From contig CACKNV010000003.1 of assembly GCA_902601705.1 (NCBI GenBank), positions 62,001 through 126,000 on the forward strand: DNA of 64,000 nucleotides, given 5' to 3'. Each line of letters starts with the position of its first letter. The stretch's first letter is position 1. Below the pieces are notes generated by a model. It was not told the DNA's origin and did not search any database. It was given only the letters and a program-made list of their open reading frames with translations. Positions 33,345 through 63,096 of this stretch are shown one piece after another. The stretch is from an uncultured Pelagibacteraceae bacterium. GTDB lineage: Bacteria > Pseudomonadota > Alphaproteobacteria > Pelagibacterales > Pelagibacteraceae. Made by a program: the position numbers and the translations under genes.

Positions 33345-33946
33345 AGATAATAACCATCTTTATTATTATAGATAAAATTATTATCCATAAATTTATCAGC
33401 AATTTTTTTTCTTAATCTATAAATATGTGTCTCAACTGTATGAGTATCTGCGTCAGTAGAATAGTTCCAAACAGTAGACAAAATCTTATCTTTTGAAATT
33501 GGTCTTTTTATATTTAATAATAATTCAAGAAGTTGAACTTCTTTTTCTGTAAGAGTAATAAAATTATCTAATTGAGATAGTTTTCTTTCATTTTTGTTCA
33601 GAAAATAATTTTTAATTTCTATTGAAGAGTTCTTATTAAATTTTTTTTTTACTGCTGAATTCTCTACTATTAGGTTAATTTCTTTTAATGTCGCTGGTAA
33701 ATTTAAATAACCATCAAAATTTTTTAATGTACCGCTTGTTTCTCCAGCACATATTTTTATATAATTGTTATTCTCAATAAGTTCCTTTTGTTTTTTATCT
33801 TTTAAAGCATCAATATGAAATAAAATAATATTATAATTTTCATTTATATTTTTGGATAAAGCGTTAAACTTTAAAAAAGGTTTTAATTCATCTAATGTCG
33901 ATATGAAGGAGGCAGGACCTAAGATTAATACATTTAATTTATGCAT
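33341..33946 (-). CDS. OmpR-type winged-helix regulator with a degenerate receiver
   Basis: The C-terminal third is a clear Trans_reg_C domain: LTEKEVQLLELLLNIKRPISKDKILSTVWNYS and HTVETHIYRLRKKIADKF. The N-terminal 110 residues look receiver-like (NVLILGPASFIS, YNIILFHIDALKDKKQKELI). The acidic pocket is replaced by GP and the phosphoacceptor Asp position appears to be His or absent. It is therefore probably not controlled by ordinary phosphorylation. No histidine kinase is adjacent. Its ATG abuts that of the divergent L,D-transpeptidase (ATGCAT). Confidence 0.78.
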   Translation of the reverse strand: MHKLNVLILGPASFISTLDELKPFLKFNALSKNINENYNIILFHIDALKDKKQKELIENNNYIKICAGETSGTLKNFDGYLNLPATLKEINLIVENSAVKKKFNKNSSIEIKNYFLNKNERKLSQLDNFITLTEKEVQLLELLLNIKRPISKDKILSTVWNYSTDADTHTVETHIYRLRKKIADKFMDNNFIYNNKDGYYL

Positions 33947-60425: not shown

Positions 60426-61006
60426 TTATTTAATTCTCTAATATAGTTAATGATTTCCTTAATAGGTAGACCCATAATTGAATCTTTATCTCCTTTAATA
60501 TATTCAAATAGTTCTAAGCCATCAGCCTCTATTTGGTAAACTCCATATGCCAACAAGGTTTTTGTATCTATCTTATTTAAATATAAGGATAATTCATTGT
60601 CATTAAAATTCTTCATTTTAAGCTCGGATGAGTCTGTGTGATTCCATATCATTGCTCCGTTTAATGAAATACATACTGAACTAATCAAAAAATGTTTCGA
60701 GTTATTAAGTTTTTTTAAAATATTAAATGCCTCCTCTCTAGAATTTGGCTTATTTATTAATTCTTTATTAAGTGAAATAACACTATCAGCACCTAGTACG
60801 TAACGGTCCGGATTTTTATTGCTCACTTTAACAGATTTTATTTCAGCAAGGCTTTTTGATATGGAGAGAGGATCGGCTCCTTCATTTAATAAAGACTCTT
60901 TTACCTCTTCTTCATCAACATTAGAAACTATAACTTCATTTTCAATATTATATTTGTCTAAAATTTTCTTTCTGACACCGCTTTTAGAGGCTAGTATTAT
61001 TTTCAT
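60422..61006 (-). CDS. maf: Maf-like nucleoside triphosphate pyrophosphatase
   Basis: A house-cleaning pyrophosphatase for modified nucleotides. ILASKSGVRKKILDKYNI is the Maf start. VLGADSVISLNKELINKP and YQIEADGLELFEYIKGDKDSIMGLPIKEI carry the remaining signature residues. Its 194 aa is normal. It overlaps ppsR upstream and aroE downstream by 4 nt each. Confidence 0.95.
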   Translation of the reverse strand: MKIILASKSGVRKKILDKYNIENEVIVSNVDEEEVKESLLNEGADPLSISKSLAEIKSVKVSNKNPDRYVLGADSVISLNKELINKPNSREEAFNILKKLNNSKHFLISSVCISLNGAMIWNHTDSSELKMKNFNDNELSLYLNKIDTKTLLAYGVYQIEADGLELFEYIKGDKDSIMGLPIKEIINYIRELNK

Positions 61007-61821
61007 CTTTTTTTTTTAATCTCAATCATTTTTAGTATTGAAGCAGCCGTTTCCTCAACAGATCTTCTTGTAACATCAATAATAGGCCAATTATTTTTTT
61101 TGAATAAATTTTTTGAGTCTTCAACTTCTTTTTTAATAGAATTCAAATCGGTATATTCTTTTAGATTTTGGTCTTTCATAATAGCTACTCTATTACGTCT
61201 TATGTCCGATAATCTTTCTGGGTCAGCTATTAATCCAATTATACAAGATGTTTTGTTTGTTATTAGATCTTTCGGTATTTTTTGATCTAATACTAATGGT
61301 ATATTTACAGTTTTATAACCTCTATTAGCCAAGTAAATAGAAGTAGGAGTTTTACTTGTTCTGCTTACTCCTAATAAAATTACATCCGCATCGTTAATAT
61401 CATCGACTTTCTTTCCGTCATCGTGAATCATTGTAAACTGAATAGCCTCCATTCTTTTATAATAATCATCATCTAAAACATGTTGAGCGCTTGGTTTATG
61501 AATGGCTTTTTGATTAAGCAGCTTTGAGAAACTTAAAATTAAATTTCCTAGTACACCAAAACAAGGTACTGAGTTTTTTTCACTTTGATTAGCAAGATAT
61601 TTGGCTAGTTTCGTTTCTACAATTGTATATAATATAATTGAATTGTCGATAAGATTACATTCTTTAATGATCTTATCTACTTGTTGCTCCGTTCGTATAA
61701 AAGCAAATTCTTTTTTCTCGTATTCAAAATTAGCAAACTGTGATTTTAATGATAAAAATATTCTATCAAGGGTTTCACCCGTAGAGTCAGACACAAGATA
61801 TACATTGTATTTTTCGTTCAT
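61003..61821 (-). CDS. ppsR: PEP synthase regulatory kinase/pyrophosphorylase (DUF299, RP001 homologue)
   Basis: A bifunctional ADP-dependent kinase/phosphorylase that controls PEP synthase or PPDK. YLVSDSTGETLDRI is the N-terminal motif. LLGVSRTSKTPTSIYLANRGYKTVNIPLV contains the P-loop-like Ser-rich site, and RRSVEETAASIL ends the protein. The start was set at ATG 61821 (272 aa), since the track's extra 24 residues are not family-like. Its divergence from hemE matches the Caulobacter and Rickettsia origin context. Confidence 0.94.
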   Translation of the reverse strand: MNEKYNVYLVSDSTGETLDRIFLSLKSQFANFEYEKKEFAFIRTEQQVDKIIKECNLIDNSIILYTIVETKLAKYLANQSEKNSVPCFGVLGNLILSFSKLLNQKAIHKPSAQHVLDDDYYKRMEAIQFTMIHDDGKKVDDINDADVILLGVSRTSKTPTSIYLANRGYKTVNIPLVLDQKIPKDLITNKTSCIIGLIADPERLSDIRRNRVAIMKDQNLKEYTDLNSIKKEVEDSKNLFKKNNWPIIDVTRRSVEETAASILKMIEIKKKR

Positions 61822-62091
61822 ATCTTTGTTAATAAAGTTATAATAAATTAATGTTGTACATGTTTCTTTTAAATTGGAAAAAATAATCAACACTAATTAA
61901 CATTATTTAAACAAGTTATTGATTGTTAATAATAATGTTTTTTTAATGTTTATAAAATGAATAAAATCTAAAAATTCAATAGAATATATAAAACTTATTA
62001 AATTCATCATGTATAAAAGTTGTAAAAATCGTTATATAACTAATTAACAGAGCCAATAACTATTATTACACTTATAAACTTAAATTATTAA
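61822..62091. other. Candidate chromosomal replication origin (oriC)
   Basis: A 270-bp spacer with no gene, the longest in the window, between ppsR (RP001) and hemE. The sequence is about 15% GC, with long A/T tracts fit for unwinding. Three DnaA-box-like 9-mers lie on one strand (listed separately). Genes on both sides are read outward. The hemE-RP001 interval is the Caulobacter Cori and the proposed Rickettsia origin, so position and content agree. No consensus CtrA (TTAA-N7-TTAA) or IHF site was found. Confidence 0.72.
61827..61955 (-). other. Three DnaA-box-like 9-mers in the candidate origin
   Basis: Read on the minus strand: TTATTAACA (61827-61835), TTATTAACA (61924-61932) and TTATAAACA (61947-61955). 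Each differs from the DnaA box TTATNCACA only at position 6 (A for C). All point the same way. TTATAAACT at 62072 on the other strand is a poorer match. No perfect TTATCCACA is present. Confidence 0.5.
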
Positions 62092-63096
62092 ATGAATAAT
62101 CTTGAAGAAATATTAATAAATAAAAAAATTTGTAAATCTATCTGGTTTATGAGACAAGCAGGTAGATATTTGCCTGAATTTAGAAAAATACGATCTCAAA
62201 ATCAAAATTTCATCAATCTTTGTTTAGATAGTGAACTAAGTTCTGAAATAACTTTACAGCCAATCACAAGATTCGATTTAGACTCTGCTATTATTTTTTC
62301 TGACATTTTAATTGTTCCTTATGCATTAAATCAAAAAGTAGAATTTTTAAAAAATCAAGGACCATTATTAGAGGAATTTAATTTTAAAAAATTCTTAAAA
62401 AACGATACAAATTCTTTTACTCAAAAATTACAACCAGTTTATAAAGCAATCCAAAAAACAAGGGAGAAATTAGATAAAAAAAAATCTTTAATAGGATTTG
62501 TTGGAGCCCCATGGACACTGTTAATCTATATGTTAGGTGCAAAAGAGAGTAAAAAAGAGATTAACTATAGTAAAATTAAGATAAAAGAATCTGAAATAAA
62601 TCTAATTCTTGATAAACTTCACGATTATCTCTGTGCTCATATTGAAAGTCAAATTAATGCTGGAGCTGATGTAATACAAATTTTTGACTCTTGGGCGGGA
62701 TTAATTTTACCGGATGATTTGTCAAATTATTGTTACACTCCAAATTTGAAAATCGTTGAATTTTGTAAAGAAAAAAGGATTCCTGTAATATGTTTCCCAC
62801 GCGGCATAAATAAAAATTACAAAGAATTTAATAGTGTAGTAAAACCTGATGGGATTAATTTAGATTATGATGTTGATCCTTATTGGGCGAAGCAAAATTT
62901 ATTAAACGTAGTTTTACAAGGAGGTTTAGATCCAAAGATATTATTGCTTGATGAAAATGAAATTTTTGATGCCACAAAAAAATATTTGGATATATTTAAA
63001 GACTTGCCTTATATTTTTAATTTGGGTCACGGTTTGCTTCCTGAAACAGATCCAAATAAAGTAAGTAAATTAGTTAAATTTTATAGAGAATACTAG
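62092..63096 (+). CDS. hemE: Uroporphyrinogen decarboxylase
   Basis: Decarboxylates uroporphyrinogen III to coproporphyrinogen III in heme synthesis. WFMRQAGRYLPEFRKIR is the substrate-binding start. FVGAPWTLLIYMLGA, IQIFDSWAGLI and FNLGHGLLPETDP are further HemE motifs. Its 334 aa is normal. hemH follows after one base. It borders the candidate origin. Confidence 0.97.
   Translation: MNNLEEILINKKICKSIWFMRQAGRYLPEFRKIRSQNQNFINLCLDSELSSEITLQPITRFDLDSAIIFSDILIVPYALNQKVEFLKNQGPLLEEFNFKKFLKNDTNSFTQKLQPVYKAIQKTREKLDKKKSLIGFVGAPWTLLIYMLGAKESKKEINYSKIKIKESEINLILDKLHDYLCAHIESQINAGADVIQIFDSWAGLILPDDLSNYCYTPNLKIVEFCKEKRIPVICFPRGINKNYKEFNSVVKPDGINLDYDVDPYWAKQNLLNVVLQGGLDPKILLLDENEIFDATKKYLDIFKDLPYIFNLGHGLLPETDPNKVSKLVKFYREY

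What the first reader, a model, noticed from the sequence alone, without database searches (positions are those of the whole stretch)
61822..62091. Candidate replication origin between ppsR (RP001) and hemE
This is the longest gene-free stretch, about 15% GC by hand count. It lies exactly where the Caulobacter origin lies and the Rickettsia origin is placed, between the RP001/DUF299 gene and hemE. Genes on both sides are read away from it, and maf-aroE-coaE-dnaQ and hemE-hemH keep the alphaproteobacterial order. Compact SAR11 origins are poorly characterised experimentally, so a short 270-bp origin would be of interest.
Basis: partly seen in the sequence, partly recalled or inferred. Interest (0 to 1): 0.8.

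Follow-up and report, generated by a model that had tools for sequence, protein, structure and literature searches.

The report
SAR11 chromosome replication origin beside hemE
The short, very AT-rich gap between two genes in this ocean bacterium is almost certainly where it starts copying its chromosome: it sits where related bacteria keep their origin, carries conserved landing sites for the initiator protein DnaA, and lies where leading- and lagging-strand composition switches over in three related genomes.

Summary
In detail: 61822-62091 is 270 bp, 15.6% GC, the longest gene-free stretch of the window, between divergent ppsR (Kinase-PPPase/DUF299, COG1806) and hemE. The origin reading is strongly supported. 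The spacer keeps its length (263-300 bp in 104 of 105 SAR11 loci) and AT-richness. DnaA-type boxes are enriched about 20-fold over shuffles, and in one whole SAR11 genome the strictest cluster of them occurs only here. In three SAR11 genera the strand-composition switch lies within about 20 kb of the spacer, and the joint fit strongly disfavours dnaA (62-74 kb away). Inversions between genera pivot near it. SAR11 has no CtrA, so this is a DnaA-driven version of the Caulobacter/Rickettsia hemE-COG1806 origin. Two details look new: the hemE-side end resembles the basal unwinding system (box, 5-nt gap, A-centred trinucleotides) and persists where hemE was deleted; and in the window's genus the boxes drifted from TTATNCACA to TTATTAACA/TAATTAACA while DnaA's recognition residues are unchanged. 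Location is as expected for Alphaproteobacteria; the anatomy is the contribution. Nothing is experimentally shown, and the window's own 164-kb contig has too weak a skew to place the origin by itself.

The parts
61822..62091 (.). candidate oriC: intergenic spacer ppsR|hemE, 270 bp, 15.6% GC
   Evidence: length 263-300 bp in 104 of 105 SAR11 loci, AT-rich throughout
61003..61821 (-). ppsR (Kinase-PPPase, DUF299/COG1806), boundary gene
   Evidence: Pfam PF03618 E=1.4e-90
62092..63096 (+). hemE (uroporphyrinogen decarboxylase), boundary gene
   Evidence: Pfam PF01208 E=1.7e-84
61827..61835 (-). ppsR-side DnaA-type box TTATTAACA (same site is TTATCCACA in 5 other SAR11 loci)
   Evidence: at the same offset in 42/42 loci of the genus
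61884..61913 (+). three direct DnaA-like boxes with starts 10 and 11 bp apart (TAATCAACA 61884, TAATTAACA 61894, ATTTAAACA 61905)
   Evidence: conserved block in the alignment
61924..61932 (-). DnaA-type box TTATTAACA
   Evidence: TTATTAACA pair within 300 bp is unique on the 164-kb contig
61947..61955 (-). DnaA-type box TTATAAACA
   Evidence: this 9-mer is in 33 of 42 spacers of the genus
62010..62018 (+). conserved TGTATAAAA repeat unit, role unknown
   Evidence: this 9-mer in 36 of 42 spacers
62032..62040 (+). half-conserved upstream tandem box (TTATATAAC; TTATCATCA in some other SAR11)
   Evidence: alignment, by inspection; weak
62041..62049 (+). hemE-side DnaA-type box TAATTAACA (TTATTCACA in most other SAR11)
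62050..62054 (+). GC-richer 5-nt spacer GAGCC (GGACC/TGACC in relatives)
   Evidence: similar spacer in alphaproteobacterial outgroup loci L299, L303
62055..62078 (+). candidate DnaA-trios AAT AAC TAT TAT TAC ACT TAT AAA
   Evidence: conserved A every third column in relatives; for tests

Best explanation
The spacer is the chromosomal origin (oriC) of this SAR11 bacterium, the direct descendant of the hemE/COG1806 alphaproteobacterial origin. Proposed working: DnaA-ATP binds the boxes spread over the spacer (one near ppsR, a central helically phased set of three direct repeats plus two inverted boxes, one near hemE). From the hemE-side box a DnaA filament extends over a 5-nt spacer onto A-centred trinucleotides and opens the DNA there; two replisomes then leave in opposite directions. 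CtrA and CcrM control, which govern the Caulobacter origin, are absent. Shown here by computation: location, conservation, box enrichment, strand-composition switch, absence of CtrA in five genomes. Inferred: DnaA binding, unwinding at the trinucleotides, bidirectional start.
For: Position and boundary genes match the experimentally mapped Caulobacter origin and the Rickettsia assignment (PMC1914354). Spacer length and AT-richness are conserved. TTATTAACA: 58 seen vs 2.3 expected in the window's genus, 77 vs 3.4 in other SAR11; canonical TTATNCACA 37 vs 2.0 in other SAR11. TTATTAACA twice, or TTATNMACA four times, within 300 bp occurs only at this spacer in the 1.2-Mb genome G003. The same positions carry TTATCCACA/TTATTCACA in some lineages and TTATTAACA/TAATTAACA in others. 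Strand-corrected third-position composition places the switch at -18, -4 and -8 kb in G003, G005, G035; the sum peaks at -8 kb (74.3) with 72.3 at the spacer and about 28-39 at 60-80 kb away on either side. The window's contig is collinear with G005 from about -92 to +41 kb. Leading-strand gene fraction is highest at the spacer in G005 and G035. Inversions pivot near it: G005/G035 at -4.5 kb. In genus g9 hemE is gone and rho is the neighbour, yet the hemE-side block remains. No CtrA in five genera, as in PMC2877005. Several alphaproteobacterial outgroup spacers show box, short GC-richer spacer, A-centred trinucleotides.
Against: The window's own 164-kb contig shows no usable switch at the spacer. 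Resolution of the skew test is tens of kb, and G035's peak (18.2) lies within the range of permuted genes (maximum 21.4). G003/G005 and G003/C3 pivots are less sharp (-18 and -25 kb). No exact TTATNCACA is present in the window's spacer. The trinucleotide signal is clear in other SAR11 (A at middle columns 85-94%, column-permutation p 0.0003; parsimony p 0.035) but weaker in the window's genus (parsimony p 0.11), and 0.14 over all loci. (.A.) runs are common in AT-rich DNA.
Confidence: 0.93

Rival explanations
1. The spacer is only a divergent promoter region for ppsR and hemE, conserved for transcription.
For: It lies between divergent genes; TATAAT-like words are present; conserved blocks lie near both starts. 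It may well contain the two promoters in addition.
Against: In g9 (G009, G020) hemE is lost but the hemE-side block is retained in front of rho. In L083 an insertion separates ppsR from the rest, and the hemE-side element stays. Canonical DnaA boxes and the strand switch are not explained.
Confidence: 0.05
2. The origin lies beside dnaA, 62-74 kb away.
For: Many bacteria have oriC next to dnaA; the contig of G005 starts at dnaA.
Against: No DnaA-type boxes upstream of dnaA in 33 of 34 loci. The strand switch is about 30 log-likelihood units worse there. dnaA lies on either side of the spacer in different genera at similar distance.
Confidence: 0.02
3. The TTAACA repeats are sites of another regulator (CtrA-like) rather than DnaA; the spacer could still be the origin.
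For: TTAA-N7-TTAAC, the CtrA site, is over-represented in the window's genus (34 vs 2.6 expected, in 27 of 42 loci).
Against: No CtrA in five SAR11 genera (PMC2877005). The enrichment is absent in other SAR11 (6 vs 4.2). The ppsR-side box position is TTATCCACA in some relatives.
Confidence: 0.1

Closest known systems
Caulobacter crescentus Cori (hemE / COG1806)
   Same: Same boundary genes, AT-rich spacer, DnaA-type boxes
   Different: No CtrA gene here, no conserved array of CtrA sites across SAR11, GANTC methylation sites depleted (2 seen vs 6-8 expected), shorter (270 bp), boxes drifted from TTATNCACA in the window's genus
Rickettsia prowazekii / Wolbachia predicted ori (PMC1914354)
   Same: hemE boundary, AT-rich spacer, computational criteria largely met
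   Different: Wolbachia lost the COG1806 side; those genomes keep CtrA; IHF sites reported there are not matched by enrichment here
Bacillus subtilis basal unwinding system (DnaA boxes + DnaA-trios; PMC8287927)
   Same: Box, GC-richer gap, trinucleotides with middle A in the right order and spacing
   Different: Box not consensus in the window's genus; upstream tandem box weak; function untested

Membership tests
hemE/COG1806-type alphaproteobacterial oriC | Spacer between hemE and COG1806 orthologues | tested here: met
hemE/COG1806-type alphaproteobacterial oriC | AT content above genome average | tested here: met
   15.6% vs 29.4% GC; conserved
hemE/COG1806-type alphaproteobacterial oriC | Consensus DnaA boxes TTATNCACA | tested here: inconclusive
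   Met in 31 of 52 other SAR11 spacers; in the window's spacer only near-consensus variants
hemE/COG1806-type alphaproteobacterial oriC | No other region of the genome with such a cluster | tested here: met
   G003 whole genome and the 164-kb contig of the window
hemE/COG1806-type alphaproteobacterial oriC | CtrA binding sites (variable outside Caulobacter) | tested here: not met
   No CtrA protein; no exact TTAA-N7-TTAA in the window's spacer. PMC1914354 lists accepted origins with none, so not a defining requirement of the wider group
hemE/COG1806-type alphaproteobacterial oriC | IHF site | tested here: inconclusive
   IHF-like proteins present; WATCAN5WTR not enriched (16 vs 13)
Bacterial oriC | Strand-composition switch at the site | tested here: met
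   Three relatives, resolution about 20 kb; own contig uninformative
Bacterial oriC | Read-depth peak, autonomous replication, DnaA footprint | not testable with these tools
   needs reads or bench work
Basal unwinding system (BUS) | DnaA box, gap of at most 16 bp, at least three trinucleotides with middle A | tested here: met
   window: TAATTAACA-GAGCC-AAT AAC TAT TAT TAC. The box is a variant and the pattern alone is weak evidence in AT-rich DNA
Basal unwinding system (BUS) | Middle A under selection | tested here: inconclusive
   p 0.0003 by columns, 0.035 by parsimony in other SAR11; weaker in the window's genus

The most novel reading that the evidence does not exclude
In this SAR11 genus the origin works without any consensus high-affinity DnaA box: boxes have drifted to TTATTAACA/TAATTAACA while the DnaA recognition helix stayed the same, and initiation depends on a cooperative, helically phased set of weak sites plus an ancestral alphaproteobacterial unwinding element (box, GGACC, A-centred trinucleotides), with no CtrA or CcrM control.
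Probability: 0.45. Interest if true: 0.62.

Novelty: new member of a known kind. Interest (0 to 1): 0.46.

Why it matters
SAR11 is among the most abundant cell types in the ocean, and in-situ growth estimates from read depth need the true origin; a 270-bp, precisely bounded origin conserved across SAR11 gives a fixed anchor. It is also a natural case of an alphaproteobacterial origin stripped of CtrA/CcrM control, and the candidate unwinding element shared with other alphaproteobacteria makes the mechanism directly testable.

Tried and rejected
Raw cumulative GC skew of G003: minimum at 97.9 kb on a flat 20-100 kb plateau, too coarse, so a strand-corrected third-position model was used. Skew on the window's own contig: uninformative. 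DnaA boxes upstream of dnaA as a check of autoregulation: none. IHF sites: not enriched. CtrA reading of the TTAA repeats: rejected for lack of CtrA. RNA element: no Rfam match in the window. A first ppsR translation in the wrong frame was corrected. Literature: no SAR11 oriC paper found; PMC9589681 reports a V-shaped SAR11 read coverage but the passages found give no origin coordinates.

Full report
OBSERVATION. The stretch 61822-62091 is 270 bp long with 15.6% GC in a window of 29.4%. It lies between divergent ppsR (61003-61821, minus) and hemE (62092-63096, plus); Pfam confirms these and the dnaQ-coaE-aroE-maf and hemH neighbours. It is the longest gene-free stretch once the conserved ppsR start is used; the apparent 824-bp gap near 24 kb is a gene missed by my ORF picker. 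No tRNA or known RNA family is present. The window is positions 62001-126000 of a 163,577-bp contig in a 15-contig SAR11 assembly.

CONSERVATION. In 105 SAR11 loci where both genes could be found, 104 have the divergent pair 263-300 bp apart; GC stays about 12-22% in the loci tabulated. The exception, L083, has a gene inserted on the ppsR side while the hemE-side element, with an exact TTATCCACA box, is kept. Alignment shows conserved blocks near both genes and in the middle.

BOXES. The most enriched 9-mers are TTATTAACA (top in other SAR11 and among the top three in the window's genus) and, in the other SAR11, TTATTCACA. Against dinucleotide shuffles: TTATTAACA 58 vs 2.3 (window's genus) and 77 vs 3.4 (others); TTATNCACA 2 vs 1.1 and 37 vs 2.0. 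In the complete 1.2-Mb genome G003, two TTATTAACA or four TTATNMACA within 300 bp occur only at this spacer. The motif was derived partly from relatives of G003, so this is not fully blind. Aligned positions exchange canonical and variant boxes: ppsR-side TTATTAACA (34 of 42 in the window's genus) against TTATTAACA 19, TTATCCACA 5, TTATCAACA 5, TTATAAACA 5 in others; hemE-side TAATTAACA-like in the window's genus against TTATTCACA (24 of 52) in others. That exchange is the main reason to read the variants as DnaA boxes. DnaA domain IV of the window genome aligns to the E. coli DnaA domain of 1j1v with the ARPRQ and RDHTT segments unchanged; that these contact the box is from established knowledge of that complex.

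LOCATION TESTS. SAR11 skew is weak. Using third codon positions of genes split into leading and lagging for each candidate origin, the whole genome G003 gives its best GC3 fit at 65 kb, with the spacer at 67 kb. With 1 Mb of G003 and 400-kb blocks of G005 and G035, all from other genera, the best offsets from the spacer are -18, -4 and -8 kb. The sum is 74.3 at -8 kb, 72.3 at the spacer, and about 28-39 at 60-80 kb on either side, where dnaA lies. Permuted genes reach 12.2, 16.0 and 21.4 at most, against 22.6, 36.4 and 18.2 observed, so G035 alone is not decisive. The fraction of genes on the leading strand is highest at the spacer in G005 and G035 and close to its maximum in G003. Own contig: no usable signal; but it is collinear with G005 from about -92 to +41 kb, so the G005 result carries over by inference.

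REARRANGEMENTS. Gene order between genera differs by nested inversions around the spacer. G005 and G035 share a core from -29 to +21 kb, with flanks swapped to the other side at nearly equal distance; the best pivot is -4.5 kb. G003/G035 gives -5 kb, G003/G005 -18 kb, G003/C3 -25 kb. A larger inversion between the window contig and G003 has ends near -117 and +113 kb in G003. dnaA lies 62-74 kb away, on either side depending on genus. Inversions symmetric about the origin are a known habit of bacterial chromosomes; the number of independent events here is small.

CONTROL PROTEINS. Five SAR11 genera have four or five OmpR-type regulators. The three full-length ones checked score best as PhoB (above cut-off in one case) or as other OmpR-family models (below cut-off), and one protein lacks a normal receiver. 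None comes near the CtrA cut-off (best 148 bits of 350). PMC2877005 also finds no ctrA in Pelagibacter, and PMC3973325 names SAR11 as the exception for CcrM, although its printed sentence is garbled. IHF alpha-like, IHF beta-like and HU proteins are present.

UNWINDING ELEMENT. Aligning on the hemE-side box gives box, 5-nt GC-richer gap (GGACC, AGACA), then trinucleotides with A in the middle. In 47 SAR11 loci outside the window's genus, A at the first five middle positions is 85-94%, against 0-72% elsewhere in that stretch (column permutation p 0.0003; parsimony on a hemE protein tree p 0.035). In 38 loci of the window's genus it is weaker (0.003 and 0.11); over all loci parsimony p is 0.14. 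The window reads TAATTAACA GAGCC AAT AAC TAT TAT TAC ACT TAT AAA. Outgroup alphaproteobacterial spacers show similar strings, such as TTATCCACA-GGACC-CAC TAC in L303 and CTATGCACA-CGACC-AAT CAC CAC TAC in L299; these were picked by eye and by a permissive rule, so they are a lead. The rule for the basal unwinding system is from PMC8287927. In genus g9, hemE was lost and rho is next to the spacer, yet the block ATTATAAACA-TGACC-TAA TAA CAA AAC TAA remains; in the window genome rho lies just beyond hemE, hemH and a further small gene.

VERDICT. A real, probably functional origin of the known hemE/COG1806 type, here without CtrA and, by literature, without CcrM; confidence 0.93 for origin, about 0.6 for the unwinding element, about 0.8 that the variant boxes are DnaA sites. 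Location is expected from Alphaproteobacteria; databases of predicted origins such as DoriC (not searchable here) may already list SAR11 predictions.

Noticed in passing
G009:C1:141682-142950 (L197) and G020 (L199): In genus g9 the hemE-hemH block beside the origin is gone and rho is the neighbour; hemE there is a distant (about 30% identity) copy elsewhere in the genome.
   Followed up: partly
window about 33365-33559 (G000:C3:95365, L213): Winged-helix OmpR-type protein with a degenerate or missing receiver domain; a similar protein lies within about 50 kb of the origin in G003, G035 and G009.
   Followed up: partly
ppsR-side part of spacers in the window's genus: A full CtrA-type site (TTAA-N7-TTAAC) in 27 of 42 spacers although CtrA is absent; from inspection of aligned spacers it overlaps the ppsR-side DnaA-type box, so probably chance plus descent. 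The window's own spacer has none.
   Followed up: partly
62010-62029: Conserved TGTATAAAA repeat of unknown role upstream of the hemE-side box in the window's genus.
   Followed up: no
G003 about +64 to +112 kb from the spacer: A roughly 48-kb segment without counterpart at the corresponding place on the window contig, probably a variable island.
   Followed up: no
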